From NCBI RefSeq assembly GCF_017308015.1, contig NZ_JAFKFW010000007.1:118844-182843 (forward strand): a stretch of 64,000 nt of DNA, written 5' to 3'. The position numbers and the translations under genes were made by a program. How positions within the stretch are numbered: the stretch's first letter is position 1; each line of letters begins with the position of its first letter. The notes beneath the pieces are model-generated. The model saw only the letters and a list, made by a program, of their open reading frames with translations. It was not told where the DNA came from and did not search any database. The stretch is from Allobosea sp. Lineage in GTDB: Bacteria; Pseudomonadota; Alphaproteobacteria; Rhizobiales; Beijerinckiaceae. Shown piece after piece: positions 22,809 to 39,611 of this stretch.

Positions 22809-22885
22809 GGCGGGGTAGCTCAGCTGGTTAGAGCAGCGGAATCATAATCCGCGTGTCGGGGGTTCAAGTCCCTCTCCCGCTACCA
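22809..22885 (+). tRNA. tRNA-Met(CAT), elongator
   Basis: A 77-nt cloverleaf can be folded: acceptor GGCGGGG/TCCCGCT, D arm GCTC...GAGC, anticodon stem GCGGA/TCCGC with loop ATCATAA (anticodon CAT), T arm GGGGG-TTCAAGT-CCCTC, and an encoded ACCA end. The G1:T72 wobble and stem sequence fit elongator Met rather than the initiator, which would have a C-A mismatch at 1:72 and three G-C pairs in the anticodon stem. A CAT-decoding Ile2 tRNA (lysidine-modified) is the main alternative. Confidence 0.93.
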
Positions 22886-22948
22886 TTTCTTTTCATTTCG
22901 CTTTTCGGCTTTGTCCTCCGACTCACGGCACTTTTTCGGGAGCTTGGA

Positions 22949-23042
22949 GCGTTTTCGCGCGAAATGCCCCGTTCGCATGAAGAAAATGCATTGAGACGAA
23001 AGCAGAGCGGCTCCGTGTTTCGGATCATCGCGGAACCGCTCT
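22949..23042. repeat. Extragenic palindromic repeat, copy B
   Basis: A conserved 20-bp block at 22971-22990 (GTTCGCATGAAGAAAATGCA) is followed by the inverted pair AGAGCGGCTCCGTG (23004-23017) and CGCGGAACCGCTCT (23029-23042). The block and palindrome recur at 63771-63844 with one change in the 20-bp block. It occupies most of the gene-free gap between tRNA-Met and the M20 hydrolase, and can act as a terminator for the latter. Confidence 0.7.
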
Positions 23043-23136
23043 GGCTCGGACATCTCGGCGGGGGTGAACCGTCAGGCCGCTTCTCTCGACGGTTCAGCGC
23101 TCTCGCATCGCCAGGCACGATACCGCACCGGGAGCA

Positions 23137-24387
23137 TCACTCGGCCAGTTTGGCTCGCGCGAGAACGGCTTGAAGCAAGACGTTCATGCCGGGCTCGATA
23201 TCCGCAATCGTGACGTTTTCCTTTTCGTTATGCGACACTCCCCCTTCGCAAGGGGTAAAAATGATCGTGGCCGGTAGAACGCTCGCGGTGTGAAGCGCGT
23301 CATGCCCTGCCTCGGTCAGCAAGTCTTTCGTTGCATAACCCAAGCGTGCGGCGGCAGATCGAACCAGATCGGTGCACGTCTTGTCCAACTCCACGCCCCC
23401 GTAGGTCCAGCTTTCGGTAACCTCGATGGAGCAGCGGGATCGCTCCTCGAGTTCGGGGAGCCGCTTTCTGAAGGCAGAAATCATCGCGTCTGCGCCGGCA
23501 GCGGTCGGGTGGCGCATGTCGCAGTTCAGCTCGACAAATTTCGGGATTGCACCAAGCAGGTTGGGCTCGGCCTTGAGACGCGTGGTGGTCGACTTGCCCT
23601 CTTCGCCGTGGAACTGCCAGCCGATCTCGTCGACGGCGAGCATCACGAGGCTGGCGGCGACGAGGGCGTTTCGGCGGCTGGGCATCGGTGTCGGACCCGC
23701 ATGGCCCGTTTCCCCGCGAATCTGGATCACATGCCCGTGCACGGTGAAGGCTCCGGTTACGACGCCAACCGGCACCTTCTCTGCATCGAGCCGCGGCCCT
23801 TGTTCGATGTGCAGTTCGAACAGGCTATCGAAGAGATCGGGAGTGAGCGTGTCGGTTCCCTTGAAGCCGAGCCTGTCGAGTTCCTCGCCCAGAGTGACCC
23901 CGTGTCTGTCGGTGCGGGCCCATGCATAGTCCGGTGTCCGGTGGCCCGTGAAGATCGCAGAGCCCATCATCGGCGGCTCGAAGCGCGCGCCCTCTTCATT
24001 GGTCCAGTTCACGACGGTGATCGGATGTTTTGTCGTGATCGCGAACTCGTTCAGCGTATGGACGAGCTCCAACCCTGCCAAAACGCCGAGAATACCATCA
24101 AATCGGCCGCCGTGAACCTGAGTATCCAGGTGGCTGCCCACGAGCACCGGCTTTGCACAAGGGTCACGTCCCGCACGAGTAGCGAAAATATTGCCCACCC
24201 CGTCGATCTGGATCCGGCAACCTGCTTCGACGCACCAATCGATGAACTGGCGCCGCATGGTCGCGTCATCGTCGGACAGGGCGAGCCGGTTCAGGCCGCC
24301 ACCGGGAGTTGCCCCAATTTCAGCCGAGCGCATGAGCATCGACCAAAGGCGCGCCATATTTGGTCTTACGTTGTTGTGCACGTTCAT
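23137..24387 (-). CDS. M20-family Zn-dependent hydrolase (allantoate amidohydrolase / N-carbamoyl-L-amino-acid hydrolase type)
   Basis: A 416-aa enzyme of the hydantoinase/carbamoylase subfamily of M20 peptidases. Metal-binding motifs are VGSHLDTQVHGGRFDGILGV (near 82-101), the NEEGARF glutamate cluster and the late ELHIEQGPRLD region, ending with the TEAGHDALHTA histidine motif. The family splits N-carbamoyl or ureido amino acids. It is on the same strand as the kinase/phospho-lyase cluster but separated by 211 bp, so it may be a later member of that catabolic region. Its exact substrate is unknown. Confidence 0.85.
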   Translation of the reverse strand: MNVHNNVRPNMARLWSMLMRSAEIGATPGGGLNRLALSDDDATMRRQFIDWCVEAGCRIQIDGVGNIFATRAGRDPCAKPVLVGSHLDTQVHGGRFDGILGVLAGLELVHTLNEFAITTKHPITVVNWTNEEGARFEPPMMGSAIFTGHRTPDYAWARTDRHGVTLGEELDRLGFKGTDTLTPDLFDSLFELHIEQGPRLDAEKVPVGVVTGAFTVHGHVIQIRGETGHAGPTPMPSRRNALVAASLVMLAVDEIGWQFHGEEGKSTTTRLKAEPNLLGAIPKFVELNCDMRHPTAAGADAMISAFRKRLPELEERSRCSIEVTESWTYGGVELDKTCTDLVRSAAARLGYATKDLLTEAGHDALHTASVLPATIIFTPCEGGVSHNEKENVTIADIEPGMNVLLQAVLARAKLAE

Positions 24388-24598
24388 GCTCAGGCCTCCG
24401 GATAGGAAGTTCGATAGATATTCGATGTGATCAAAACCCGGACCGCGCCTCTGGTGTCTGGCAGAAGCTTCCGGAATACGGGTCGATCACGGATATGAAC
24501 CGATCGGCGGATGCCCCCCGCGGTTCCCGAACAGTCGCTCGTTATGCGCCGATCCTTGCCTTGGAACGGCGGAGGATCAGCCCCCGGGACGGACCCGA

Positions 24599-25921
24599 TC
24601 AGCCGGTGATGTCCGTCAGCACATCGTCAAGCGCGGTGAGGAACAGGTCGGCGTTCTCCTTCGAGAAGACGAGCGGCGGTCGGATCTTGAGCACGTTTGC
24701 GGTCGGTCCCGCCGCGCTGATGAGAACGCGCCGGGCGCGCAATCCGTTGACGACGCGCGCCGCTTCTTCGGCCGCCGGCTCGCGCGTCGCACGGTCGCGC
24801 ACCAGTTCCGCCCCGACGAACAGGCCGGCGGAACGGATATCGCCGATAATGAGGTGCCGCTGAGCCAGGGTTTCCAGCCCCTTGCGCAGATGGGCTCCGA
24901 CTGTCGCGGCATTCTCGATCAGATTTTCGCGCTCGATGACATCGAGAACCGCCATGCCGACGGCGGCCGAGACTGCATTGCCGCCGAAGGTGTTGAAATA
25001 GCGGAGGCGTTCGCCGAAGCGTGCGAGCACCTCCGGCCGCGCGACCATGCCCGCGATGGGGTGCCCGTTGCCCATGGGCTTGCCGAGCGTGACCATATCG
25101 GGGACGACGCCGTGGCGCTGGAAACCCCACATGCCATCGCCCGTCCGCCCGAAGCCCGGCTGGACCTCATCGGCGATGAAGACGCCGCCTGCCTCGCGCA
25201 CGGCCTCGACAGCCTCGCGCAGGAAGCCTGGTGGATCGGCAAACACGCCATCGCTGGAAAAGATCGTGTCGACCAGAAGCGCAGCCGGACTGACCCCGTC
25301 GGCCCGCATCTGAGCCAGCGCCTGCCGGACATGATCTGCGAAGATGCGGCCGATATCTTCGTCGGGATTGCGGTACGCGTCGGGAGCGGGCACCCGATAG
25401 ATATCCTGACCGAGCTCCATGCCCGCGCCGAGCGACGGGGACATCTCGGCGATCGCATTGGTGACGCCGTGATAGGCGAATTGCGTGATGATGAAGCCGG
25501 TGCCGCCAGTATGGGCCCGGGCGACACGGAAGGCGAGGTCATTGGCCTCGCTGCCGGAGCAGGTGAACATGACATGGCCGAGCTCCGGCGGGAAATAGCC
25601 GAGCAGCCGCTCGGCATAGTCCAGGACCGTCTCGCCGAGATAGCGCGTATGAGTGTTGAGCCGCCCGGCCTGCTCCGCAAGTGCGGCCACGACATGCGGA
25701 TGGCAATGCCCGACCGAGGCGACATTATTGTAGACGTCGAGATAGGGGCGCCCCTCCGGATCGTAGAGCCAGACACCCTCGCCGCGGGTCACATGCACCG
25801 GATCGGCATAGAAGAGCCGGTAGGCCGGGCCAAGCAGGCGCCGGCGGCGGTCGACCATCTCCCGCTCGCGCTCGGCCAGGGCATGGGCGGCGGCAGGGTC
25901 GTAGGCATTGATCATCGTCAT
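24599..25921 (-). CDS. Class III PLP enzyme of the phospho-lyase type (5-phosphohydroxylysine / ethanolamine-phosphate phospho-lyase-like)
   Basis: A 440-aa PLP enzyme usually annotated as aminotransferase class III. Its sequence closely follows human ETNPPL and PHYKPL from memory: VYNNVASVGHCHPHVV, CSGSEANDLA, GGVFIADEVQPGFGR, LGKPMGNGHP (Schiff-base lysine near 281), YFNTFGGNAVSAAVG and NVLKIRPPLVFS. Those enzymes remove phosphate and ammonia from phospho-hydroxyamines, giving an aldehyde. The neighbouring kinase makes the phospho-substrate, which strongly favours this over a simple transaminase. Start: ATG 25919-25921 has GGAG 8 bp upstream; a GTG at 25930 overlaps the kinase stop (GTGA). 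Confidence 0.85.
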   Translation of the reverse strand: MTMINAYDPAAAHALAEREREMVDRRRRLLGPAYRLFYADPVHVTRGEGVWLYDPEGRPYLDVYNNVASVGHCHPHVVAALAEQAGRLNTHTRYLGETVLDYAERLLGYFPPELGHVMFTCSGSEANDLAFRVARAHTGGTGFIITQFAYHGVTNAIAEMSPSLGAGMELGQDIYRVPAPDAYRNPDEDIGRIFADHVRQALAQMRADGVSPAALLVDTIFSSDGVFADPPGFLREAVEAVREAGGVFIADEVQPGFGRTGDGMWGFQRHGVVPDMVTLGKPMGNGHPIAGMVARPEVLARFGERLRYFNTFGGNAVSAAVGMAVLDVIERENLIENAATVGAHLRKGLETLAQRHLIIGDIRSAGLFVGAELVRDRATREPAAEEAARVVNGLRARRVLISAAGPTANVLKIRPPLVFSKENADLFLTALDDVLTDITG

Positions 25922-25926
25922 CGTCT

Positions 25927-26982
25927 TCACTCCAACCGGCAGGCTTGGCGCAGATAGGCCTGGGCTTCCGCCCGATCCAACGCGTCGCAGCGGGCCAGGC
26001 GCACCCAGGCCTGCAGGTTGTTGCGCAGGATATAGTCGCGGTTCTCGGGGTAGCGGGCTGCGCGCCAGCCCGAGATCGCCACGGTCAGAACCATGCGCGT
26101 CGTGATGAGATCGAACAGGAGGTCGAGCTCGACGGGCTCCAGCGGCACGAGCCGATGATAGGCTGCGATCATCTCCGCCGCCATCTCCAGCGGATGACCG
26201 GTTTCAGAGACCTGATAGGCGGCGGCTACAGCCAGGTTGTTGATCATTGGCGCGTGGACCATGTCGCCGAAATCGATGATCCCGACGACCCGGCCGTGAT
26301 CGTCCGGCGCCACCAGCACGTTGTGCGGATTGAGATCGTTATGGATCACCTGTGCCCGCAGGCCCCCCAGCCGGGGCATCGCGTACAGGTCGAACCGATC
26401 GAGCATGCGCTCCGCCAGCGCGCGCTGTGCCGGATCGGGAATATGCGCCAGCAGGGAGCGCACGGTGTTGGCGTGCTTCAGGTCCCACATCAGCTCATGC
26501 CCGGCTCCGGCATGGAAAAAGCCGCGCAGTGCGAGGTCCAGGCGGGCTGCGTGAAGCCCCAGATCGTGCTGCAGGCTTTTGCCGGGGGCGACCTTGTGCA
26601 TCGGGACGCCCTGCAGGAACGACAGCACCCGAACCAGGCGCGGCGCCTCGTCCCGGTCCTCGAGCAGCCAGTCGGCGGCACCGGAACGGGTGCGCATGAG
26701 GCGGGGGACCGGCAGGCCGGGATCGACGGCCGCGATGTGGAGCAGCGCCTTTGTCTGAAAATCGATGACCTGCGGATCCTCGGCAGGATTGCTGACCTTC
26801 AGCACGTAGTGCGCCTCGCCGTGGCGCAGATGGTAGTTGCGGTCACGTTCGCCGGTCAGCTCGCGGACCTCGCCGGCAAGGCCGAAGACATCATGGGCCA
26901 TGCGCTCGACGTCGTGCAGCGACAGCGCCGGCGAAGCCGTGTCGAGAAGGACGCTTGTGTCCGCAATCTGGCTGATCGTCAT
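25927..26982 (-). CDS. Hydroxylysine kinase-like phosphotransferase (APH/HYKK family)
   Basis: A 351-aa kinase of the aminoglycoside-phosphotransferase fold. It has the P-loop-like strand (GERDRNYHLR), YVLKVSNPAEDPQ, the catalytic loop VIHNDLNPHNVLV near 212 and the Mg-binding GIIDFGDM near 232. The segments LKVSN, DLKHANTV, IIDFGDM and YPENRDYI match, by memory, the layout of human hydroxylysine kinase (HYKK: LKISN, NLKN, ILDFGDM, YPENKDYL). It precedes the phospho-lyase by a few bases. A palindrome CGATGCATCG lies 42 bp upstream. The substrate (5-hydroxylysine, ethanolamine or similar) is inferred. Confidence 0.82.
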   Translation of the reverse strand: MTISQIADTSVLLDTASPALSLHDVERMAHDVFGLAGEVRELTGERDRNYHLRHGEAHYVLKVSNPAEDPQVIDFQTKALLHIAAVDPGLPVPRLMRTRSGAADWLLEDRDEAPRLVRVLSFLQGVPMHKVAPGKSLQHDLGLHAARLDLALRGFFHAGAGHELMWDLKHANTVRSLLAHIPDPAQRALAERMLDRFDLYAMPRLGGLRAQVIHNDLNPHNVLVAPDDHGRVVGIIDFGDMVHAPMINNLAVAAAYQVSETGHPLEMAAEMIAAYHRLVPLEPVELDLLFDLITTRMVLTVAISGWRAARYPENRDYILRNNLQAWVRLARCDALDRAEAQAYLRQACRLE

Positions 26983-27023
26983 GGCAAGGCTTCCTGGATG
27001 CGTCGCCGCGGGGTCTTGATTGG

Positions 27024-27033
27024 CGATGCATCG
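27024..27033. promoter_or_regulatory. Candidate GntR operator upstream of kinase
   Basis: CGATGCATCG is a perfect 10-bp palindrome, 42 bp ahead of the kinase start, and shares the 8-bp core GATGCATC with the two palindromes ahead of the transporter operon (35767-35795). The shared core suggests one regulator for both units. Confidence 0.4.
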
Positions 27034-27130
27034 GTGTTGATCTTGACCGTGCGTTCCTTGCAGCCGGCGCCTCGGGAGGGCCATCGGCAGGTTCGTCGCC
27101 GCATGATCGGGAGGTTCGGTGCGCGCGCGG

Positions 27131-27817
27131 CTAGGACTGCGGGTCCGGGCTGTCGGGCGGGATCAGGATGTGGTTGTTGAGGATGACGCCGCCTCCGGCG
27201 AGGATATCCTCACGGATCGCCGTTTTTGCCGCTTGTGGCTCATGGCGCCGGATCGCTTCGATGACGTGGTAGTGATGCTCGATCATGGTTCGTCCGCCAT
27301 CTGCATAGGCCGCGGCGATGACAGGCCCCATCTGGAGCCAGAGATTCTGCAGGATGCCTCGCAGGGTCGGCATGGCGGCGATCTCGGCCAGCTCGAAATG
27401 GAAAATCTGGTTGATCGCCGTCGCGCGCGAAAATTCTTTGCATGCCAGGGCCTGCTCGTTGTCTTCGGTCAGCCGTTCCAGCCTCGCGATATCGGCCGGT
27501 GTCGCGTTCATGGCGGCTCTCTCCGCCGCGAGCCCCTCGAGCTTCAGGCGGATCAGGCGGATTTCGAGATAACGTTCTTCAGGCAGGTTCGGGACGCGGA
27601 TGTCGCGCGGGCTTCTCAGTGCGAGCGCCCCTTCGTGAACCAGCCGGAGGACCGCATCGCGCACGGGCGTCACGCTGGTGCCCGCCTGCTGGGCGAGATC
27701 GCGGATCTTGAGACGGTCGCCGGGTTTCAGCGCGCCTTTGGTCAGCGCCTCGGCGATCTGCTGGTACACGCTGCCGCCGAGACTGTTCTGGCCCCCGCCT
27801 CGATGCTCGAAATTCAC
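27131..27817 (-). CDS. GntR-family transcriptional regulator (FCD domain)
   Basis: A 228-aa regulator with an amino-terminal winged helix (VYQQIAEALTKGALKPGDRL, IRDLAQQAGTSVTPVRDAVLRL) and an all-helical FCD effector domain (EIRLIRLKLEGLAAERAA, FHFELAEIAAMPTLRGIL, EHHYHVIEAIRRHEPQAA) with the usual Asp/His metal-ligand pattern. FCD regulators bind palindromic operators as dimers and release them on sensing acids. The GTG at 27815-27817 is chosen because GGGGA lies just upstream; a longer frame would add 53 residues of unlike composition. It sits between the kinase and aldehyde dehydrogenase genes, same strand. Confidence 0.88.
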   Translation of the reverse strand: MNFEHRGGGQNSLGGSVYQQIAEALTKGALKPGDRLKIRDLAQQAGTSVTPVRDAVLRLVHEGALALRSPRDIRVPNLPEERYLEIRLIRLKLEGLAAERAAMNATPADIARLERLTEDNEQALACKEFSRATAINQIFHFELAEIAAMPTLRGILQNLWLQMGPVIAAAYADGGRTMIEHHYHVIEAIRRHEPQAAKTAIREDILAGGGVILNNHILIPPDSPDPQS

Positions 27818-27909
27818 GATGAGGTCCCCATAAGCTTGGCGCTGTCCGGCCTGCTTAGCGTTGGCCTTGCGGGGCGAGGGCTGATGTCGGCCCCCGCCCC
27901 GGCCAGATC

Positions 27910-29340
27910 TCAGGCAGCCTGGAAGCCGAACATCGACTTGGTCTCGAGAAAGTCCTCGAAGCCGAACCTGCCCCATTCCCGGCCATTGCCGGACTGCTTG
28001 TAGCCGCCGAAGGCGCCGGCGAGATCGCCGGGAGCCCCGTTGAGATGCACCATGCCGGCGCGGATCTGCCGTGCCACCTTGCGTGCCTGATCGAGATTAC
28101 CCGCGGTAACATAGCTCGAAAGCCCGTAGACCGTGTCGTTGGCGATGGCGATCGCCTCCGCCTCGGTGTCGTAGGGCAGGATCGAGAGCACGGGGCCGAA
28201 AATCTCCTCGCGTGCGATCGTCATGTCGTTACGCACATCGGCGAAGATCGTCGGGCGGATATAGTAGCCGCGGTTGAGGGTTTCCGGGCGGCCGGGCCCA
28301 CCAGCCACCAGGCGGGCACCTTCCGCGATGCCGGCTTCGATGAGCGCCTGGATCTTGTCGAACTGTACCTTGCTGACGACCGGCCCGATCGTTGTCGCCG
28401 CATCACGCGGATCCCCGACGACTGTCTGCTCGGCGACCTTTCGTGCGATCTCGATCACCGCTTCCTGCTGGTCCCGCGGCACCAGCAGGCGCGTCGGGGC
28501 GTTGCAAGACTGGCCGCTATTGCTGAAGCACTGGCGCGCGCCATGCGTGATAGCTTTGGCAAGATCGGCGCCGGGCAGGATGATGTTCGGCGATTTGCCG
28601 CCCAGTTCCTGCGCAACACGCTTCACGGTGTCGGCCGCGGCGCGCGCCACGGCGATGCCGGCCCGGGTCGAGCCGGTGAACGAGACCATGTCGACATCGG
28701 GATGCGACGACAGAGCGGCGCCGACCGAAGGGCCGTCGCCGTTGACCATGTTGTAGACGCCGGCCGGGACGCCGGCCTCGTGCATGATCTCGGTGAAGAG
28801 CAGGCCGGACATGGGCGCCACTTCGCTGGGCTTCAGCACCATGGTGCAGCCGGTGGCGAGCGCCGGGCCGACCTTGCAGGTGATCTGGTTCATCGGCCAG
28901 TTCCACGGCGTGATGAAGGCACACACGCCGATCGGCTCGCGGGTAACCAGCGTCCGGTTGATGATCTCGTCGAACTCATAGGTCTTGAGCACCTCCAGAA
29001 CCTGCGACAGGTGGCCGAGACCCGCAGCCGCCTGGGCATCCCGCGCGAAGCCGAGCGGGGCCCCCATCTCGTCGGAGATGGCGGCCGCCATCTCGTCATA
29101 GCGCTTCTTGTAGATGGCGATGACGTTGCTCAGCAGTTCCACCCGCTCCTTCCGGCTGGTGAGCGAATAGGAGGCGAAGGCGCGCCGTGCGGCTGCGACG
29201 GCCTTGTCCACATCGGCGCGCTCGCCCATGGCGATGCGCGCATAGGCCTCTTCGGTGGCCGGATTGACGACGTCGAGCGTAGCGCCGCCCGTCGGAGCGA
29301 CCCAGGAACCGTCGATGTAGAACTGGAGATTATGCGTCAT
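27910..29340 (-). CDS. NAD(P)-dependent aldehyde dehydrogenase
   Basis: A 476-aa aldehyde dehydrogenase superfamily protein. Visible motifs are TPWNWPMNQITCKVGPALA (coenzyme site, near 145), VSFTGSTRAGIAVA, QELGGKSPNIIL with the general-base glutamate and NSGQSCNAPTR with the catalytic cysteine near 279, then EEIFGPVLSI. In the present context it would oxidise the aldehyde made by the phospho-lyase: 2-aminoadipate semialdehyde if hydroxylysine is the substrate, acetaldehyde if ethanolamine is. It is 39 bp after the deacetylase gene in the same operon. Confidence 0.93.
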   Translation of the reverse strand: MTHNLQFYIDGSWVAPTGGATLDVVNPATEEAYARIAMGERADVDKAVAAARRAFASYSLTSRKERVELLSNVIAIYKKRYDEMAAAISDEMGAPLGFARDAQAAAGLGHLSQVLEVLKTYEFDEIINRTLVTREPIGVCAFITPWNWPMNQITCKVGPALATGCTMVLKPSEVAPMSGLLFTEIMHEAGVPAGVYNMVNGDGPSVGAALSSHPDVDMVSFTGSTRAGIAVARAAADTVKRVAQELGGKSPNIILPGADLAKAITHGARQCFSNSGQSCNAPTRLLVPRDQQEAVIEIARKVAEQTVVGDPRDAATTIGPVVSKVQFDKIQALIEAGIAEGARLVAGGPGRPETLNRGYYIRPTIFADVRNDMTIAREEIFGPVLSILPYDTEAEAIAIANDTVYGLSSYVTAGNLDQARKVARQIRAGMVHLNGAPGDLAGAFGGYKQSGNGREWGRFGFEDFLETKSMFGFQAA

Positions 29341-29378
29341 GATCTGTCTCGACTCCTTGGCAAGCAATGAGGATGGCT

Positions 29379-30425
29379 TCAGCGGGTCATAAGCCCGTCC
29401 AGGAACTCCCCGAGGCAGTCCCCGATGACCGAGATCTGGTAGCCGCCCTCCTGAACGATCACGGTCGGCAGTCCCGCGGCGCCGACCCGTTCGCCAATGC
29501 CGCGGAAGCCCGCGGTCGAGACGTCGAGCAGGCCGATCGGGTCTTCGCGGTGGCTGTCGTAGCCGAGCGCCACGACGAGCGCCTCGGCGCCAAACTCGCG
29601 CACCGTCGCGAGCGCTCGGTCCACCGCCTGATGGAAAGCGGTGTCGTCCGCTTTTGGCGCGAGCGGCAGGTTGACGTTGCAGCCCTCGCCCTCCCCCTCG
29701 CCGCGCTCGTCCGCGTAGCCGATGTAATATGGATAGTAGCTGTTGGGATCGACATGGATCGAAACCGTCAGCACGTCGTTGCGGCGGTAGAAGATTTCCT
29801 GCGTGCCGTCGCCGTGATGGGCGTCGACATCGAGCACGGCGACCTTGCCGAAGCGTTGGCGCAGACGCTCGGCCGCGGTGGCCGAATTGTTGAGGTAGCA
29901 GAAGCCGGTGGCCCGGTCGGCGCGGGCATGGTGGCCTGAGGGGCGGCACAGGGCATAGGCCGTCGTCTCGCCGGCGATCACGGCGTCCGCTGCCGCGACA
30001 GCAGTATGGTTGGAGCGCAGAGCCGACCGCCAGGTGTTCGGGCCGATCGGCACCGCCATGTCACCCAGATAGTAGCCGGCTTCGGCCACGATCCAGTTGG
30101 AACGACAAGGCCGGCGATGCGCCATGTCCGGTCGGCCGTTCCAATAGGGCGAAACGTTGGGAAGGACCTCGGGGCCGGCCTCCGGCACCTGCCGCCAGCG
30201 CTCGAAGGCGCTCTCCAGGAAATCGAGATAGCTTTGCGTGTGGACGGCCAGCGCCGGCGCCGTCCCGTAGTCGGAAGGTTGCTCCGTCGCGATGCCCCGC
30301 TGCCTGAGAGCGCCCAGCAGCGCCTCGGTCCGGCTCGGCAGGTCCTTGGGCTCGCGGATGCGGCCGACCTGCATGAACTGCTGAGGATCGTGCAGGCTCT
30401 GGTCCGGATGGAAGAATGCTCGCAT
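29379..30425 (-). CDS. Histone deacetylase-family amidohydrolase (acetylpolyamine amidohydrolase-like)
   Basis: A 348-aa Zn-dependent deacetylase. Motifs: CRPSGHHARADRATGFCYLN (active-site His pair), VAVLDVDAHHGDGTQEIFY (Zn-binding Asp and His), and a late VIVQEGGYQ with the transition-state tyrosine. The amino part (FFHPDQSLHDPQQFM...) and NSYYPYYIGYADERGEGEGEG resemble bacterial acetylpolyamine amidohydrolases (AphA, Mycoplana ramosa type). Such enzymes deacetylate N-acetylated amines. Its place between the importer and the aldehyde dehydrogenase suggests it frees an acetylated or similar amide substrate before catabolism. That role is inferred. Confidence 0.88.
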   Translation of the reverse strand: MRAFFHPDQSLHDPQQFMQVGRIREPKDLPSRTEALLGALRQRGIATEQPSDYGTAPALAVHTQSYLDFLESAFERWRQVPEAGPEVLPNVSPYWNGRPDMAHRRPCRSNWIVAEAGYYLGDMAVPIGPNTWRSALRSNHTAVAAADAVIAGETTAYALCRPSGHHARADRATGFCYLNNSATAAERLRQRFGKVAVLDVDAHHGDGTQEIFYRRNDVLTVSIHVDPNSYYPYYIGYADERGEGEGEGCNVNLPLAPKADDTAFHQAVDRALATVREFGAEALVVALGYDSHREDPIGLLDVSTAGFRGIGERVGAAGLPTVIVQEGGYQISVIGDCLGEFLDGLMTR

Positions 30426-30484
30426 GGCGCCTTGCTCCTGTCGTCCTGATCACATCATCGGTCGGCGCGCTTCTGCGCCGCACC

Positions 30485-32140
<1,656 letters not shown>

Positions 32141-32141
32141 G

Positions 32142-32978
32142 TCAGTCCTTCCGCCCGCGCAGATGCGGATTCATCGCGTCGTTGAGGCCTTCGCCGATCA
32201 GGTTGATCGCCAGCACGGTCAGCAGGATGGCGACGCCCGGGAAAACGCTCATCCACCAGGCTTCGCGCAGCATCGTGCGAGCGGCGCCGATCATGAAGCC
32301 CCAGCTCATCATGTTGCGATCGCCGAGGCCGAGGAACGACAACGAGCTCTCGGTCAGGATCGCGGTCGCCACCATGAGCGAGGCGGTCACGATGATCGGC
32401 GAGATCACGTTGGGCAGGATCTGGGTGAACATGATGCGCGGACCGCTCTGGCCGATGACCACTGCGGCCTGAACGAACTCGCGCGAACGCAGGCTCAGGA
32501 ACTCGCCACGGACAAGGCGCGCCACGGGCGGCCAGGAGACGATCGCGATGGCGAGCGTGATCGAGGTGATGCTCGGATTGAAGATCGCCACCAGGACGAT
32601 GGCCATGGCGAAGGCCGGGATGGTCTGGAAGAACTCGGTGAAGCGCATCAGCACGTCGTCGATCCGGCCACCGTAGTAGCCTGCGAGAGCCCCGATGGAG
32701 ACGCCGATGACGACTGCGACCGCCGTCGAGATCAGGCCGATGAGCAGCGAGACGCGTGCGCCATAGGCGAGACCGGCGGCGATGTCGCGCCCGAGCATGT
32801 CGGTGCCGAGCGGAAAAGCCGGATCTTCGGACGGCGCCAGCAGCGGATCGCCGACGCTCTGCCAGGGGCTGACCGGGAAAAGCAGGGGGGCGGCGAGCGC
32901 GACGATCGCCACGACGACGAGGATGCCGAGGCCGATGAGAGCGCCGTAGTTCTTGGCGTAGCGTTGGAAGAATTTCAC
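32142..32978 (-). CDS. Dipeptide-type ABC transporter permease (DppC-like)
   Basis: A 278-aa inner-membrane permease with an amino-terminal helix (IGLGILVVVAIVALAAPLLF), a periplasmic loop with PLGTDMLGRDIAAGLAYGAR, the typical DppC signature, and five further helices. The EAA loop is VAAAAIVIG-type: SREFVQAAVVIGQSGPRIMF-TQILPNVISPII. It pairs with the DppB-like protein 12 bp upstream. Confidence 0.94.
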   Translation of the reverse strand: MKFFQRYAKNYGALIGLGILVVVAIVALAAPLLFPVSPWQSVGDPLLAPSEDPAFPLGTDMLGRDIAAGLAYGARVSLLIGLISTAVAVVIGVSIGALAGYYGGRIDDVLMRFTEFFQTIPAFAMAIVLVAIFNPSITSITLAIAIVSWPPVARLVRGEFLSLRSREFVQAAVVIGQSGPRIMFTQILPNVISPIIVTASLMVATAILTESSLSFLGLGDRNMMSWGFMIGAARTMLREAWWMSVFPGVAILLTVLAINLIGEGLNDAMNPHLRGRKD

Positions 32979-32989
32979 GACTGCGATCC

Positions 32990-33967
32990 TCAGCTTGCGG
33001 CTTCGATGCGCGGATCGACGAAGCGGTAGAGCAGGTCCGAGACGAGATTCACGAAGACCACGACCGCTGCGGTGACGAGGAAGACGCCCAGCAGCACCGG
33101 ATAGTCGCGCTGCAGGAGCGCATCGAACATCAGGCGCCCGATGCCGGGCCAGGCGAACACGGTTTCCGTCAGCACGGCGCCGCCGACGAGTTGCCCGGCC
33201 TGCATGCTGGCGAAGGTGAAGACCGGCAGGATCGCATTGCGCAGCACGTGCCGCCGGATGATCCGCGCCTGGGGGACGCCCTTGGCGCGAGCGGTCTTGA
33301 CGAAGTCGAGCGACATCACCTCGAGCATCGAGGCGCGGGTGAGACGCGTATAGATCGCGGTGAAGAACAGGCCGAGCGTGACGGTGGGCAGGATGAGGTG
33401 GTGCCCGATGTCGAGCGCCCGGGCCCAGCCGCTATAGCCGCTGCCGATGGTTTCCATGTCGAAGGGCGGCAGCCAGTCGAGATGCAGAGAGAACACCAGC
33501 ACGGCCATCAGCGCGACCCAGAACAGCGGCGTGGCGTAGAAGATCAGGGCACCGGTCATGACCGCGCTGTCGGTGACGCTGCCGCGCCGATAGGCGGCGA
33601 CGACACCGAGCATGATGCCGAGCGCCAGCGAGAACACGAAGGCGCACCCGGTCAGCAGCAACGTCGCCGGCAGCCGGTCGAGGATCAGGGTCATTACCGG
33701 GAGCTGGTTGCGGTAGGAGAAGCCGAGGTCGCCGGTCACGGCGCCCTTCAGATAGGTGAAGAGCTGCTGGTACAGCGGCTGGTCCAGGCCGAACTGCGCA
33801 CGTAGCTGGGCAATGTACTTGGCATCGCCCGCTCCCGCCTCCCCGGCCAGCACCGAAGCCGGATCGCCCGGCGCCATGTGAATAAGCAGGAAGTTCAGGA
33901 TGACCACGCCGAGCACGACGAAGGCCGCCTTGAGCAGGCGTTGAAACACGAAATCGAGTGATTTCAA
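32990..33967 (-). CDS. Dipeptide-type ABC transporter permease (DppB-like)
   Basis: A 325-aa permease with six helices and the DppB signature HMAPGDPASVLAGEAGAGDA after helix 1, plus the EAA loop MSLDFVKTARAKGVPQARII-RRHVLRNAILPV. It forms the pore with the DppC-like subunit for an imported small peptide or amine. Its start lies 75 bp after the substrate-binding protein stop, on the same strand. Confidence 0.94.
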   Translation of the reverse strand: MKSLDFVFQRLLKAAFVVLGVVILNFLLIHMAPGDPASVLAGEAGAGDAKYIAQLRAQFGLDQPLYQQLFTYLKGAVTGDLGFSYRNQLPVMTLILDRLPATLLLTGCAFVFSLALGIMLGVVAAYRRGSVTDSAVMTGALIFYATPLFWVALMAVLVFSLHLDWLPPFDMETIGSGYSGWARALDIGHHLILPTVTLGLFFTAIYTRLTRASMLEVMSLDFVKTARAKGVPQARIIRRHVLRNAILPVFTFASMQAGQLVGGAVLTETVFAWPGIGRLMFDALLQRDYPVLLGVFLVTAAVVVFVNLVSDLLYRFVDPRIEAAS

Positions 33968-34042
33968 GGTTATTCTCCCGACGGCCGCATGGCGTAGGGC
34001 CGGACCGGCATCGTGACGCCGGTCCGGACGTGATCGGCGCGC

Positions 34043-35617
34043 TTACTTGGAGATCCAGACTTCGTCCATGTACTGGTTCAGGCCAATACCGGTATTGACG
34101 AGGTTCTTTACCTTCTTGCGGTTGATCGTGACGTTCTGCATCTCGTAGAGCCAGTTCAGCGCCACGTCGTCGACGAGGATCTTTTGCGCTTCCGCATAGG
34201 CCTTGGTGGCGACATCCTTGCTGACCGCGCTCGCTCCCTCAGCCAGCAGCGCGTCCACCTTCGGGTTCAGGTAGTTCTGGTTGTTGCCGTAGGGCGTGCC
34301 CTTGACGACGTTGCCCGACAGATAGTGGCGGGCCACGCCGAGGGCCGGCTCGCCATATTGATAGGTAAAGTTGAAGGTCATGTCGAAGTCGAAATCCGCG
34401 AGCTTCTGGGACCACCCGCCGGCATCCACGCCCTGAATGTCGATCTTGAAACCGAGCTGCGAGATCTGCTGCTTGATGTACTCGGCCATCCGGTCCCAGG
34501 CCGCGCCATAGGGCAAGGGCATCAGCTTGATGCTGTGGTCAGCCGGGTTGATTCCCGCATCGGCGAGCAGCTTCTTGGCCTTGGCCATATCGAAGGGATA
34601 GGCCGTGACCTCGGGCGTGTAATACAGCGTCGTCGACGCGAACGGACCGGTAGCGGCCTTGCCCAGGCCGAAGAAGATGTTCTTCACGATGAAATCGCGG
34701 TCGATCGCATGCATCAGGGCCTTGCGCACGTTCTTGTCCGAGAACGGCATCTTGCGCTGGTTCAGCTGCATGAAGACGAGCGGGCCATAGACCTCCCAGC
34801 CGCTGGTCGTGCTCTCGACATCCTTCAGCTTGACCAGTCGACGAACCTCGAAACCTTCGACATCGCCGCCGCGCAGCACGTCGACCGTGCCCTTCTCGAA
34901 GGCGACCGCGCGGGAGGCGGCATCCGGGATGATGCGGAAATAGAGCTCGTCGAGATAGGGCTTGCCCGGCTTCCAGTAATCCTCGTTGCGGACGAGGTGG
35001 ATATAGGAGCCGCGCTTCCACTCCTTGAGCTTGAACGGGCCCGTGCCGATCGGCGTCTGGTTGGCGGGATTGGTGCGGTAATCCGTGCCGTCGTAGAGAT
35101 GCTTCGGGATGACCGGGAAGGAACTCAGCTCGAAAGCATAGAGAAACGCCGAGAACGGCTTCTTCAGCTTGAAGACGACCTGGTTCGGGGCGGGTGCGGT
35201 GATGCTCTCGACATAGGTCGCCGCGATCAGGCGCCAGCGCGGATGCGACTCGCGCAGGAATTTGTCGGCCGTAAACACGACATCGTCGGCGCTGAACGGT
35301 TTTCCGTCATGCCATTTGACGTTGTCCTGAAGAGTGAAGGTATAGGTCAGGCCATCCGGCGAAACGGCCCAGGACTTGGCCAGGGACGGCAGCGGCTGCA
35401 GGTCTTTGCCGTAAGTGAGGAGGCTCTGATAGATTTGCCCGCCGACATACAGAGTGGGACCCTGCGTGTTGAGGCCGACCATCAGCATGGGAGGCTCGGG
35501 CTGCGCGATCATATTCAGTATTCCGCCTTTGACCGGCGTTTCCTGAGCGGTTACGCCGCCTGTTGCGGCAAGCACAAGGCCAGCGGCGAGCGCGCCGCGT
35601 CGCGTCAATTGAAACAT
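34043..35617 (-). CDS. ABC transporter substrate-binding protein, family 5
   Basis: A 524-aa periplasmic solute-binding protein with a Sec-type signal (RRGALAAGLVLAATGGVTAQ, cleavage after TAQ) and the extracellular solute-binding family 5 fold: NMIAQPEPPMLMVGLNTQGP, LAKSWAVSPDGLTYTFTLQD-NVKWHDGKPFSADDVVFTAD, TPIGTGPFKLKEWKRG. Family 5 binds peptides, nickel, opines or amines. It is the first gene of the operon, preceded by a strong CCGGAGGAAATCAGC ribosome site and by palindromic operators, so it defines the transport specificity for the catabolic cluster. Confidence 0.95.
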   Translation of the reverse strand: MFQLTRRGALAAGLVLAATGGVTAQETPVKGGILNMIAQPEPPMLMVGLNTQGPTLYVGGQIYQSLLTYGKDLQPLPSLAKSWAVSPDGLTYTFTLQDNVKWHDGKPFSADDVVFTADKFLRESHPRWRLIAATYVESITAPAPNQVVFKLKKPFSAFLYAFELSSFPVIPKHLYDGTDYRTNPANQTPIGTGPFKLKEWKRGSYIHLVRNEDYWKPGKPYLDELYFRIIPDAASRAVAFEKGTVDVLRGGDVEGFEVRRLVKLKDVESTTSGWEVYGPLVFMQLNQRKMPFSDKNVRKALMHAIDRDFIVKNIFFGLGKAATGPFASTTLYYTPEVTAYPFDMAKAKKLLADAGINPADHSIKLMPLPYGAAWDRMAEYIKQQISQLGFKIDIQGVDAGGWSQKLADFDFDMTFNFTYQYGEPALGVARHYLSGNVVKGTPYGNNQNYLNPKVDALLAEGASAVSKDVATKAYAEAQKILVDDVALNWLYEMQNVTINRKKVKNLVNTGIGLNQYMDEVWISK

Positions 35618-35645
35618 GCTGATTTCCTCCGGATTATTTTTTATT

Positions 35646-35665
35646 ATTTGCGATTATTCGCAAAT
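35646..35665. promoter_or_regulatory. Perfect inverted repeat ATTTGCGA-N4-TCGCAAAT
   Basis: Two 8-bp arms around TTAT form a perfect dyad 29-48 bp upstream of the SBP start codon, in an AT-rich leader. The place suits a repressor operator overlapping the promoter. Different in sequence from the GATGCATC sites, so it may bind a second regulator. Confidence 0.5.
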
Positions 35666-35765
35666 TGCTGTTTTCGACTCTAATTTACCTGGCCTTGTCG
35701 TCGACCTCGCGTAAGCTGAAAGCCCCTGCCGGAAGCCTCTCGGCTGCTTGCTTCCAGACGTCGAA

Positions 35766-35796
35766 TTATGATGCATCATATTATGATGCATCATAA
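35766..35796. promoter_or_regulatory. Tandem palindromes TATGATGCATCATA (candidate GntR operators)
   Basis: Two copies of a perfect 14-bp palindrome (35767-35780 and 35782-35795) are spaced 15 bp centre to centre, about 150-180 bp ahead of the SBP start codon. Tandem perfect dyads in a catabolic operon with its own GntR/FCD gene are most simply its operators. The core recurs ahead of the kinase gene. Confidence 0.6.
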
Positions 35797-35963
35797 ACGG
35801 TCAAGAGGCGGCCACATCTTTCGATGGGGAAAGAGCGACCCGCGACGCGCCTTGGAATGCGCCTATCGCGCCATATGCCGCCCGGCGATTAAGCGCGCAG
35901 CCGGGCAGTTGGTGTTCATCTCCACGCGTGAGCATCCGCATTGCAGCGAACGTCGGTCATTGC

Positions 35964-37346
35964 TTACGGGCCTGCGCCCCGGTGCCGGTCCCCTATGGGC
36001 TCCCTGTCGTCTGGCCCGGGCTCTCCCGGAGCGACCGGAACCGATACGGTCGCTCTCAGTCCGCCACCGACATTGTTTTCCAGCGCGACTTTACCGCCAC
36101 CGATATGCGCAAGCGCGGCCTCCGCTATCGCCAAGCCCAGTCCGCTGCCATTTTGGATGTGCCCGCGGCCTCGGTAGAAGCGCTGAGTGACCAGGGACAG
36201 CTCGTCTGGGGGAATGCCGGGCCCCTGGTCTTCGACCGCGATGGTGCGCTGACTTATCCGTCGCCAGCGGACACATCCGCCCTGCGGGCTGTATCCGCAG
36301 GCATTCTCATGCAGATTGCGCAACGCGAGCCGGAGAATGTCGGAAGCCCCGGTGATCGCAAAGGCATCGAGCTCCGGATCGATCTCGACGATGAGATCCT
36401 TTCGCAGGCGCTCGCGATCGATCTCGCGCAGGAGTGGCCCGACCAGGACGCGCCCTGCCGTCGGCTCGGCGAGCCCCGCATCGAGGCGCGCAAGCGCGAG
36501 CAACTGACTCACCAGCCGGCCGGTCCGATCCACGCCGGCGATGATCTGGTCGAGAGCGGAAAGGCGCATGGCAGGCTCCGTCGCCGCCCGAGCGACCTGG
36601 GCCTGGGTGCGGATGCCGGCGAGCGGTGTTCGCAGCTCATGTGCAGCGAAGGCCGTGATCTCGCGCTCGTGCCGCCAGGCGGCTCCGAGCCGCCGGAACA
36701 AGCCGTTCAGCGCGTCGGTGACCGGGCGGATCTCGTCTATCGCTTCGGCGCGCACCGGCGCGAGATCGTCGGGTGCCCGGCCCTTGAGGTCTGCCGCGAT
36801 CTGTTTCAGCGGCCCCAGGCCGCGCCCGATGCTCAGCCAGATCAGTCCGGCAAAGAGTGGCAGAATGAGCAGAATCGGCACGACGAGACCCGAGACGAGA
36901 TCCTGGACGAGCCGCTCGCGCAGCCCGAGCCTGTCGCCGACCAGCACGCGAACGCCTTTCGCCTCATCTTCGATGGCGTAGACACGCCAGGTCTCGCCAT
37001 TGACGACGCTGTCCGAAAATCCTTCCCGCGCCTCGGTCAGCCGTTCTGCCGGAGCCGTGCCGGAGGACGCCACGAGACGTCCGCCCAGCGACCAGATCTG
37101 ACAGGAAAGCTGCCGCGCGTAGCCACCGGCGTTGGCTGACGGCGCCGCCGCAATCGCATCCCCGGTCGCCCCGCCATCGTCCCGGACCAGCGAGGAAACC
37201 ATGCGGGCGGCCTCCTGAAGACGCGTATCGAGAACATGCTCCAGCTCCCGCTTGGTGCCGAGATAGATCCAGATCGTCGCCGCCAGCCAGATCACGCCGG
37301 TGGTGGCCACAAGGATGAGGAACAGTCTGGCACGCAGCGACGTCAC
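35964..37346 (-). CDS. Two-component sensor histidine kinase (QseC/PmrB-like)
   Basis: A 460-aa membrane kinase: an amino-terminal helix (LFLILVATTGVIWLAATIWI), a periplasmic domain of about 120 residues, a second helix near 160-180 (GLVVPILLILPLFAGLIWLS), a HAMP linker, the HisKA box FAAHELRTPLAGIRTQAQ with the phospho-histidine, and an HATPase domain with NLHENACGYSP, DQGPGIP and GSGLGLAIAE. It starts at GTG 37344-37346, overlapping the response regulator stop (GTGA), so the pair is co-translated. The amino-terminal region and motif order resemble QseC/PmrB-type sensors. Confidence 0.93.
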   Translation of the reverse strand: MTSLRARLFLILVATTGVIWLAATIWIYLGTKRELEHVLDTRLQEAARMVSSLVRDDGGATGDAIAAAPSANAGGYARQLSCQIWSLGGRLVASSGTAPAERLTEAREGFSDSVVNGETWRVYAIEDEAKGVRVLVGDRLGLRERLVQDLVSGLVVPILLILPLFAGLIWLSIGRGLGPLKQIAADLKGRAPDDLAPVRAEAIDEIRPVTDALNGLFRRLGAAWRHEREITAFAAHELRTPLAGIRTQAQVARAATEPAMRLSALDQIIAGVDRTGRLVSQLLALARLDAGLAEPTAGRVLVGPLLREIDRERLRKDLIVEIDPELDAFAITGASDILRLALRNLHENACGYSPQGGCVRWRRISQRTIAVEDQGPGIPPDELSLVTQRFYRGRGHIQNGSGLGLAIAEAALAHIGGGKVALENNVGGGLRATVSVPVAPGEPGPDDREPIGDRHRGAGP

Positions 37347-38005
37347 GGCGCGCCCCTCAGGCGATAGCCGACGCCGCGCACGGTCTCGATCCGTTCGCGG
37401 CCGAGCTTCTGGCGCAGATTATGGATATGCACCTCGATCGCGTTGCTCTCCACATCCTCCTGCCAGCCATAGAGGCGCTCTTCCAGTTCGGCGCGTGAGC
37501 GGATCGTGCCGGGTCGTTCGGCGAGCGCGCGCAGGATGGCGAATTCCCGTCGCGTTACGTCGAGTCTGACGCCATCCTGCGCGACCTCGTGGCTCGCGGG
37601 ATCGAGAACGAGCCCGGCCACGGCGATGGTGGCGGCAGCTCTGCCCTCGCCGCGCCGGGCAATCGCGCGCAGACGTGCGGCGAGTTCGTCGAGATCGAAG
37701 GGTTTGCCCAGGTAGTCGTCCGCCCCGCGGTCGAGTCCGGCGATCCGGTCTCGCGTATCGTCGAGAGCCGTAAGCAGAAGAATCGGCCGCCGCTCGCCTT
37801 CCGTCCTCAGGCTGTCGACCAGGTCGAGCCCCGAGCCGTCCGGCAGCATGATGTCGAGTACGATGGCGTCGAAAGAGCCGGCAGCCAGCGCATGCCGGCC
37901 GTCGGCACAGGAACCGACGACCTCCGCGCTGATACCGTGGAGCTTCAGGCCGACGGTGAGCCCGTCGGCCAGGATGGGGTCGTCTTCGACGATCAGAACG
38001 CGCAT
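37343..38005 (-). CDS. OmpR-family response regulator (QseB/PmrA-like)
   Basis: A 220-aa regulator with a receiver domain (MRVLIVEDDPILADGL, acidic pocket EDD, phospho-Asp in DAIVLDIMLPDGSGLD, Lys in YLGKPFDLDEL) and a winged-helix domain (DGVRLDVTRREFAILRALAE, EVHIHNLRQKLGRERIETV-RGVGYRLRG). It overlaps the kinase gene. A direct repeat CTTAAG-N5-CTTAAG at 38038-38054 lies 33 bp upstream of its start, matching the box bound by PmrA/QseB-like regulators, so autoregulation and control of the divergent dsbA-like gene are likely. Confidence 0.95.
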   Translation of the reverse strand: MRVLIVEDDPILADGLTVGLKLHGISAEVVGSCADGRHALAAGSFDAIVLDIMLPDGSGLDLVDSLRTEGERRPILLLTALDDTRDRIAGLDRGADDYLGKPFDLDELAARLRAIARRGEGRAAATIAVAGLVLDPASHEVAQDGVRLDVTRREFAILRALAERPGTIRSRAELEERLYGWQEDVESNAIEVHIHNLRQKLGRERIETVRGVGYRLRGAP

Positions 38006-38037
38006 TTCATTCCCTCGACGCCGATTGTCTTTCGCAG

Positions 38038-38054
38038 CTTAAGGCTGCCTTAAG
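38038..38054. promoter_or_regulatory. Direct repeat CTTAAG-N5-CTTAAG (PmrA/QseB-type box)
   Basis: Two exact CTTAAG hexamers, 11 bp apart start to start, lie in the divergent region between the response regulator gene and the dsbA-like gene. The (T/C)TTAAG-N5-(T/C)TTAAG layout is the recognised PmrA/BasR-like binding pattern. The site could serve both promoters. Confidence 0.65.
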
Positions 38055-38148
38055 CTGGTGGAAGTCGATGCCCGATACCCGCAAGAGACCCGCAGATGCC
38101 GCGCCACCGTCGGCGCTGCGTAGCCGGACATCGAAGAGGCGCAGAACC

Positions 38149-38787: not shown

Positions 38788-38799
38788 GGACGACCGGAA

Positions 38800-39465: not shown

Positions 39466-39527
39466 TCGCGGGGTGACCGACCGCAACCGCCCTCCGCTTC
39501 TCCCCCGTGCGCATCGAGAAACAGAGG

Positions 39528-39572
39528 CATGGAGCAGTTCCGCGCTTCGAAGAATCGCCGAACTGCTCCATG
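39528..39572. terminator. Long palindrome between convergent genes (repeat-related, copy C)
   Basis: CATGGAGCAGTTC and GAACTGCTCCATG form a perfect 13-bp stem around a 19-base loop. The inner sequence CCGCG-TTCGAAGAA-CGCCG resembles the palindromic part of the repeats at 23004-23042 and 63806-63844. It lies between the L,D-transpeptidase (ends 39465) and the hydrolase (ends 39612) and probably serves as a bidirectional terminator. Confidence 0.65.
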
Positions 39573-39611
39573 AGGCGCCGGGTCGTTCTGGATGACGCAG
39601 GCAGTTTTCAT

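What the first reader, a model, noticed from the sequence alone, without database searches (positions are those of the whole stretch)
24599..30425. Kinase + phospho-lyase + aldehyde dehydrogenase cluster: predicted hydroxylysine (or ethanolamine) degradation system
The kinase (25927-26982) has HYKK-like segments and the next gene is not an ordinary transaminase but resembles PHYKPL/ETNPPL phospho-lyases. With the aldehyde dehydrogenase they form a full route: hydroxy-amine to O-phosphate to aldehyde to acid. For 5-hydroxy-L-lysine the products would be 5-phosphohydroxylysine, 2-aminoadipate semialdehyde and 2-aminoadipate; for ethanolamine, acetaldehyde then acetate. A dedicated Dpp-type importer and GntR/FCD regulator lie in the same cluster. 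Bacterial members of these two enzyme families are usually annotated only as 'phosphotransferase' and 'aminotransferase', so the pathway would be missed.
Basis: partly seen in the sequence, partly recalled or inferred. Interest (0 to 1): 0.82.

Follow-up and report, generated by a model that had tools for sequence, protein, structure and literature searches.

The report
Amino-alcohol breakdown cluster with deacetylase
A bacterial gene cluster appears to import a nitrogen-containing alcohol, probably with its amine masked by an acyl group, unmask it, and break it down by adding and then eliminating phosphate; the enzyme types are known, but this combination and its substrate are not settled.

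Summary
The "aminotransferase" (24599-25930) belongs to the phospho-lyase family of ETNPPL and A1RDF1, not to the transaminases; the kinase (25927-26982) is HYKK-like; an aldehyde dehydrogenase with intact motifs sits beside them. The proposed substrates are not established: ETNPPL, A1RDF1 and (recalled) PHYKPL are equally distant from the window enzyme (43-44% identity), so placement cannot choose between ethanolamine and hydroxylysine.

The five fetched loci with the most similar kinases (59-83%) all carry it. Among 78 named kinase+lyase loci, all 10 with this Dpp-type importer also carry an amidohydrolase, against 5 of 68 without it; on the tree too few independent events remain for significance.

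I propose import of an N-acylated vicinal amino alcohol, deacylation, O-phosphorylation, elimination of phosphate and ammonia, and aldehyde oxidation. The cluster is accessory (its deacylase at over 90% identity in 3 of 67 genus members), beside a tRNA-Met gene. The genome holds three further kinase+lyase sets in other contexts, which suggests a diversified toolbox. New variant of a known kind; substrate open.

The parts
34043..35617 (-). family-5 solute-binding protein of the importer (SBP_bac_5)
   Evidence: Pfam PF00496, 318 bits; found next to the permeases in L042, L043 (both cut by the stretch end) and L059
32990..33967 (-). importer permease 1
   Evidence: 88-97% identical in L042, L043, L059; 62-66% in L061, L097, L109, L110, L124, L125, L134, L137
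32142..32978 (-). importer permease 2
   Evidence: same loci
30485..32140 (-). fused double ATPase of the importer
   Evidence: ABC_tran in two stretches; 1-bp gap to permease 2
29379..30425 (-). acetylpolyamine-amidohydrolase-type deacylase (HDAC fold)
   Evidence: top PDB hits are named acetylpolyamine amino-/amidohydrolase, 3men (326 bits) and 6phr (262 bits); motifs SGHHA, DVDAHHGDGT, GYDSHREDP, EGGY present (their metal/catalytic roles recalled)
27910..29340 (-). aldehyde dehydrogenase
   Evidence: Aldedh, 516 bits; Cys279 and Glu245 motifs present (roles recalled)
27131..27817 (-). GntR/FCD regulator
   Evidence: Pfam GntR and FCD; 68-92% homologues in L042, L043, L059, L060, L061
25927..26982 (-). 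HYKK-like amino-alcohol kinase (APH fold)
   Evidence: APH 82 bits; HNDLNPHN and IDFGD motifs; AF2 mean pLDDT 90, nearest folds homoserine kinase 2ppq, amicoumacin kinase 6sui, aminopropanol kinase 6ef6
24599..25930 (-). PLP-dependent phospho-lyase of the ETNPPL/PHYKPL/A1RDF1 family
   Evidence: Lys284 and Asp254 conserved
23137..24387 (-). hydantoinase/carbamoylase-family M20 amidohydrolase; less certain member
   Evidence: PRK09290.1-3, 478 bits; homologues (39-49%) beside the pair in L060, L061, L110, L117 but not found in L042 or L043
22809..22885 (+). tRNA-Met at the edge of the accessory region
   Evidence: homology to the corresponding site of five genomes without the cluster, and of G026, ends at 22886-22894

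Best explanation
An accessory catabolic cassette for a vicinal amino alcohol that probably arrives with its amine acylated. Proposed order: (1) the Dpp-type ABC importer takes up the compound; (2) the HDAC-fold amidohydrolase (in some relatives an M20 amidohydrolase as well or instead) removes the N-acyl group; (3) the kinase phosphorylates the hydroxyl next to the freed amine; (4) the PLP phospho-lyase eliminates phosphate and ammonia, giving an aldehyde; (5) the aldehyde dehydrogenase oxidises it to an acid; GntR/FCD senses the compound. Shown here: gene families, motifs and recurring linkage. Inferred from families: steps 3-5 as chemistry. Inferred from linkage only: step 2 as part of this route, and its order. 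The substrate is undetermined; an acylated hydroxy-diamine (such as acetyl-2-hydroxyputrescine or N6-acetyl-5-hydroxylysine) and an N-acyl-ethanolamine fit best in my judgement.
For: Lyase family. Kinase. Deacylase. The five fetched loci whose kinases are most similar to the window's (59-83%: G026, G050, two Microvirga, Pararhodobacter) all carry importer subunits, TPP enzyme, deacylase, GntR and lyase; four of the five also have the ALDH, L061 does not. Of 78 named pair loci, 10 of 10 with the window-type importer carry an amidohydrolase against 5 of 68 without it (Fisher 2.4e-9, not phylogeny-corrected). The deacylase also occurs with the pair in Inquilinus L134, in five Roseovarius/Sulfitobacter loci, and in G003, G014, G049, where the G049 locus has a PotA over its cut-off and two weakly PotD-like binding proteins. 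Own genome: a second importer+deacylase set stands beside a HemL-like enzyme, with no kinase, as if importer+deacylase were a module joined to different amine-handling enzymes.
Against: On the tree only 4 independent pairs differ in the importer: the HDAC-fold deacylase goes the same way in 3, none against, p 0.25; any amidohydrolase in 2.1 on average, none against, median p 0.5. 81 of 102 scored loci have neither importer nor amidohydrolase, so it is not part of the core reaction. Close lyases without this importer exist: three Microvirga loci (73% identity), of which only L123 has an M20, lie inside the window lyase's 9-row clade. In the class sample no other strong lyase hit was seen by eye beside a listed deacylase hit; that list was truncated. 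No activity is shown. The order could be reversed, with deacylation last. The role of the TPP enzyme in relatives is unexplained.
Confidence: 0.55

Rival explanations
1. Free 5-hydroxylysine degradation as in mammals: kinase, phospho-lyase to 2-aminoadipate semialdehyde, ALDH to 2-aminoadipate; the deacylase supplies or trims substrate or is unrelated.
For: Kinase is HYKK-like (recalled query); lyase 43% to recalled PHYKPL; ALDH present.
Against: Lyase equally close to ETNPPL and A1RDF1; no HglS match for onward 2-oxoadipate use (one known route only); does not use deacylase, M20 or TPP partners; P. fluorescens is reported to use other routes for 5-hydroxylysine (PMC12930750, passages).
Confidence: 0.13
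2. Ethanolamine (free or released from N-acyl-ethanolamines): phosphoethanolamine, acetaldehyde, acetate.
For: A1RDF1 (recalled as active on phosphoethanolamine) and ETNPPL are the two best structure-database matches; no EutB match in the genome, so no ammonia-lyase route for ethanolamine was seen; an amidase-signature enzyme joins a related cluster in Rhizobium L110.
Against: The same genome has three other kinase+lyase sets that could serve ethanolamine; the deacylase family is recalled to prefer acetylated diamines; a Dpp-type importer would be unusual for free ethanolamine (recalled).
Confidence: 0.2
3. Hydroxylated diamine or polyamine catabolism without the acylation step mattering: e.g. 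2-hydroxyputrescine to 4-aminobutanal to GABA.
For: In G049 the pair sits with deacylase homologues, PotA and weakly PotD-like transport genes and a class-III aminotransferase matching omega-transaminases; closest deacylase structures are acetylpolyamine hydrolases.
Against: The window importer is Dpp-type, not Pot-type; no direct evidence for hydroxylated polyamines; G003, G014 and G049 lyases form one close group.
Confidence: 0.15
4. Kinase+lyase pair and importer+deacylase are two unrelated neighbouring functions.
For: In this genome pairs occur without the window-type importer or deacylase (L039, L040, L041) and deacylases without a pair (L139, L140); the tree-corrected association is not significant.
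Against: Same strand, gaps of 1-148 bp and one 4-bp overlap from binding protein to lyase; found together in other genera, with deacylases of 38-96% identity.
Confidence: 0.12

Closest known systems
Mammalian HYKK + PHYKPL / ETNPPL (Veiga-da-Cunha et al. 2012; content recalled; the paper is not held, and was seen only as a reference)
   Same: Same two enzyme families and chemistry: O-phosphorylation, then PLP-dependent loss of phosphate and ammonia
   Different: Here a gene cluster with importer, deacylase, ALDH and regulator; substrate unknown; lyase equidistant from both human enzymes
A1RDF1 phospholyase (PDB 5g4i; Arthrobacter origin recalled) and PRK06148 fusions
   Same: Closest solved lyase; PRK06148 joins homologues of both proteins in one chain
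   Different: Window proteins are separate, and this genome has its own fusion in an open frame of 1033 aa elsewhere; window lyase 44% to A1RDF1, 39% to the own fusion
Aminopropanol (Aut/RMM) microcompartment cluster (aminopropanol kinase, PDB 6ef6)
   Same: APH-type phosphotransferase with an 'aminotransferase' (its class and a phospho-lyase role are recalled), an aldehyde dehydrogenase and a GntR regulator (PMC6620236, passages; that paper itself proposes transamination to lactaldehyde); 6ef6 is the third-ranked fold match of the window kinase
   Different: No BMC shell match in this genome; deacylase and ABC importer instead of shell and GabP permease
Acetylpolyamine amidohydrolases (PDB 3men, 6phr, 3q9b)
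   Same: Deacylase family and motifs
   Different: Here placed beside kinase and phospho-lyase; substrate not tested
[quoted passage not shown]
   Same: Class-III PLP enzyme acting as a lyase within a catabolic cluster
   Different: Window lyase scores the PbfA model at 202 bits against a cut-off of 525 and comes with a kinase

Membership tests
ETNPPL/PHYKPL phospho-lyase family | Clade with characterised phospho-lyases, apart from class-III transaminases | tested here: met
   104 lyase rows incl. A1RDF1 and ETNPPL vs 4 transaminases, SH-aLRT 100 (quick tree, no bootstrap, long-branch warnings)
ETNPPL/PHYKPL phospho-lyase family | PLP Lys/Asp and lyase-specific residues | tested here: met
   Lys284, Asp254 conserved; 25 columns shared by at least 97% of lyases and absent from 4 transaminases, e.g. 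N68, N69, R96, Q257, K415; 19 of the 25 are identical in both A1RDF1 and ETNPPL (few transaminases as contrast)
ETNPPL/PHYKPL phospho-lyase family | Releases phosphate and ammonia from an O-phospho amino alcohol | not testable with these tools
   needs an assay
Hydroxylysine kinase (HYKK) | APH fold with HxDxxxxN and DFGD-type motifs | tested here: met
Hydroxylysine kinase (HYKK) | Closer to HYKK than other APH kinases of the genome | tested here: met
Hydroxylysine kinase (HYKK) | Specific for 5-hydroxylysine | not testable with these tools
   26% identity does not carry substrate
Hydroxylysine pathway | Onward use of 2-aminoadipate by HglS | tested here: not met
   no PF07063 match in the own genome; other onward routes not tested
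PRK06148 three-domain fusion | Kinase and lyase in one chain | tested here: not met
   two genes overlapping by 4 bp
Eut ethanolamine ammonia-lyase route | EutB | tested here: not met
   no PF06751 match in the own genome
Aut/RMM aminopropanol microcompartment | BMC shell proteins | tested here: not met
   no PF00936 match in the own genome
Acetylpolyamine amidohydrolase | Closest solved relatives and metal-site motifs | tested here: met
   (motif roles recalled)
Acetylpolyamine amidohydrolase | Hydrolyses acetylated diamines | not testable with these tools
   needs an assay

The most novel reading that the evidence does not exclude
Bacteria hold a diversified, largely unannotated set of amino-alcohol cassettes built on a kinase + phospho-lyase core, each joined to its own uptake and unmasking enzymes; this cluster is the branch that first strips an N-acyl group with a histone-deacetylase-like enzyme, giving a route for acylated hydroxy-diamines or N-acyl amino alcohols that my ten searches of the held papers did not turn up.
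Probability: 0.35. Interest if true: 0.65.

Novelty: new variant of a known kind. Interest (0 to 1): 0.5.

Why it matters
Phospho-lyase homologues turn up in 39 of 337 genomes of a class sample (E 1e-60) and next to a kinase in most loci examined, but carry generic names such as 'phosphotransferase', 'aminotransferase' or 'hypothetical protein'. A class of amino-alcohol catabolism may thus be overlooked by annotation. The contexts collected here give concrete, testable substrate classes and suggest a biological role for some bacterial HDAC-like deacylases.

Tried and rejected
Ordinary omega-transaminase: rejected. Choosing ethanolamine or hydroxylysine by phylogeny: not possible, all three references equidistant. 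Microcompartment or Eut route: no PF00936 or PF06751 match. Reading the substrate from the importer: the closest solved solute-binding proteins are diverse and below 170 bits. Reading it from the ALDH: the best matches 6x9l, 3i44, 3ty7 carry no substrate name. Significance of the importer-amidohydrolase link after tree correction: not reached. Papers: in ten searches no listed title or abstract start described a deacylase + kinase + phospho-lyase cluster; the library holds only open-licence papers, and I saw passages of three papers only. Rows dropped: L047, L108, L127 and L139-L142 had no scored pair and were left out of the context counts and tree.
Full report
What is there. All genes lie on the minus strand in the order solute-binding protein, two permeases, fused ATPase, HDAC-fold deacylase, aldehyde dehydrogenase, GntR/FCD regulator, kinase, class-III PLP enzyme, M20 amidase. 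Gaps are 75, 11, 1, 59, 38, 92 and 148 bp, then a 4-bp overlap between kinase and lyase, then 211 bp before the M20 gene.

The PLP enzyme. The two best PDB sequences are phospholyase A1RDF1 (376 bits) and human ETNPPL (370 bits); the next, dialkylglycine decarboxylase, has 208 bits. In a quick maximum-likelihood tree of 108 rows the 104 lyase rows, including A1RDF1 and ETNPPL, separate from four transaminases with SH-aLRT 100 (no bootstrap, and the program warned of long branches, A1RDF1 among them). Twenty-five columns are shared by at least 97% of the lyases and by none of the four transaminases; 19 of them are identical in both references, and Lys284 and Asp254 are common to all rows.

The kinase. 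It matches the N-terminal part of PRK06148 (313 bits) and the APH family. A recalled human HYKK sequence finds it first (143 bits) among 8 tested of 12 APH places of the genome, ahead of the three other kinases that sit with phospho-lyases (135, 123, 81 bits); the remaining loci give at most 24 bits. An AlphaFold2 model (mean pLDDT 90) is closest to homoserine kinase 2ppq, amicoumacin kinase and the microcompartment aminopropanol kinase 6ef6, at 17-19% identity. That fits an amino-alcohol or amino-acid kinase, without naming a substrate.

Why sequence does not give the substrate. The window lyase is 43.2% identical to ETNPPL, 43.6% to A1RDF1 and 43.0% to recalled PHYKPL, while recalled PHYKPL and ETNPPL are 67% identical to each other.

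The closest relatives. Two species of the same genus (G026, G050) carry the cluster at 82-100% protein identity, with a 568-aa TPP enzyme between ATPase and deacylase that the window lacks; the G026 copy scores over the PRK08199 cut-off. Two Microvirga loci and one Pararhodobacter locus have importer subunits, TPP enzyme, deacylase, GntR, kinase and lyase; in Pararhodobacter the importer genes point the other way. These five have the most similar kinases (59-83%); the next one, Microvirga terricola L064 at 57%, has neither importer nor deacylase. The ALDH is in four of the five, not in L061. An M20 amidase of the window's type lies between GntR and kinase in L060 and L061, but none was found in L042 or L043.

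Wider contexts. Ten have at least two importer subunits of the window type; all ten carry an amidohydrolase (deacylase or one of two M20 types), against 5 of the other 68 (Fisher 2.4e-9). Five Roseovarius/Sulfitobacter loci combine importer, deacylase, a second TPP type, a second M20 type, kinase and lyase; the two were typed in L125 as PRK07586 and PRK06837. Inquilinus L134 has importer, deacylase, kinase and lyase; Rhizobium L110 has importer, aminotransferase, amidase, kinase, lyase and M20. These are not independent points. On the lyase tree only four supported independent pairs differ in the importer; the HDAC-fold deacylase goes the same way in three, none against (p 0.25), and any amidohydrolase in 2.1 on average, none against (median p 0.5). 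In G003, G014 and G049 the pair sits with deacylase homologues; in G049 with a PotA over its cut-off and two weakly PotD-like proteins. Against a tight link, 81 of 102 scored loci have neither importer nor amidohydrolase, and three Microvirga loci inside the window lyase's own 9-row clade lack this importer.

Own genome. It has three more sets: two split pairs (L039, L040; lyases 60% and 63% identical) and one fusion in an open frame of 1033 aa; the two split pairs have visibly different surroundings. It has a second window-type importer (49-64%) with a deacylase and a HemL-like enzyme and no kinase in the stretch (L140), and a deacylase next to a TPP enzyme (L139). No match was found for EutB, HglS or microcompartment shell proteins. 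I read this as an importer+deacylase module and a kinase+lyase module that can be combined; the window combines them.

Distribution. In an evenly drawn class sample 39 of 337 genomes have a lyase match at E 1e-60 or better (the weakest of these, near 210 bits, may be transaminases) and 187 of 337 a deacylase-family match at 1e-25. By eye, among the listed hits, no other strong lyase had a deacylase nearby; one weak pair in G265 was 5 kb apart; the deacylase list was truncated. Within the genus only 3 of 67 genomes have a close (over 90%) copy of this deacylase, though all 67 have a more distant one. The left neighbour is present in 66 of 67. At the corresponding site of five genomes without the cluster (G012, G023, G029, G044, G060) and of G026, DNA homology stops at 22886-22894, just past a tRNA-Met (22809-22885). 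In G012 it resumes at window 39636, 4.9 kb later; in G029 at 56522, 8.4 kb later. In G026 the cluster lies on a different contig from that site. The cluster is thus accessory and probably horizontally acquired (inference).

Mechanism. The chemistry of kinase, lyase and ALDH follows from their families: R-CH(OH)-CH2-NH2 is phosphorylated, loses phosphate and ammonia, and leaves an aldehyde that is oxidised. The deacylase suggests that the amine arrives acylated, and the importer fits a peptide-like compound. Candidate substrates are acetyl-2-hydroxyputrescine, N6-acetyl-5-hydroxylysine and N-acyl-ethanolamines. The TPP enzyme in relatives could instead mean that a 2-oxo acid with an acylated distal amine is decarboxylated before deacylation, as in the 2-ketoarginine route (recalled). 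The data do not choose between these.

Known and new. Each enzyme type is known, and so is the kinase + phospho-lyase principle in mammals (recalled). A bacterial cluster of APH-type phosphotransferase, aminotransferase, aldehyde dehydrogenase and GntR regulator is described for the aminopropanol microcompartment (PMC6620236, passages). In the listings of the ten paper searches I saw no description of the combination with a deacylase. [quoted passage not shown] I rate it a new variant of a known kind with an open substrate.

Noticed in passing
window 22809-22885 and 22886-39636: tRNA-Met marks a variable region: homology to six genus sites stops within 10 bp of its end; shared sequence resumes at window 39636 in G012 and at 56522 in G029.
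   Followed up: partly
window 30426-30484; L042:4069-5772, L043:4017-5720: A TPP-enzyme gene present in both same-genus clusters is missing from the window; a 51% homologue lies at G000:C18:29475-31130, among genes that by eye look like acyl-CoA metabolism.
   Followed up: partly
L140 (G000:C55:53500-72500): Second window-type importer with a deacylase homologue, a HemL-like PLP enzyme and an FAD oxidase, but no kinase+lyase pair.
   Followed up: partly
L139 (G000:C45:32500-51500): A 62% deacylase paralogue stands next to a TPP enzyme of the type found in L125 (47%); all 67 genus members have a deacylase of 49% identity or more. Why TPP enzymes accompany these deacylases is unexplained.
   Followed up: partly
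L069, L070, L078, L084, L096, L122: In six loci (Caballeronia and relatives, one Roseovarius) the kinase+lyase pair sits with genes that by eye look like 5-oxoprolinase subunits (PxpABC).
   Followed up: no
L051:8122-10467: A frame of 782 aa that appears to fuse kinase and lyase directly, shorter than the roughly 1000-residue fusions.
   Followed up: no
L091, L111, L113, L118-L121, L126, L128, L129 and others: A further pair type, mostly Variovorax-like and Erwinia/Pantoea, is flanked by a regulator that by eye looks Lrp-type and by a short protein that looks HAD-like by eye but gave no Pfam or NCBIfam match at the limits used.
   Followed up: no
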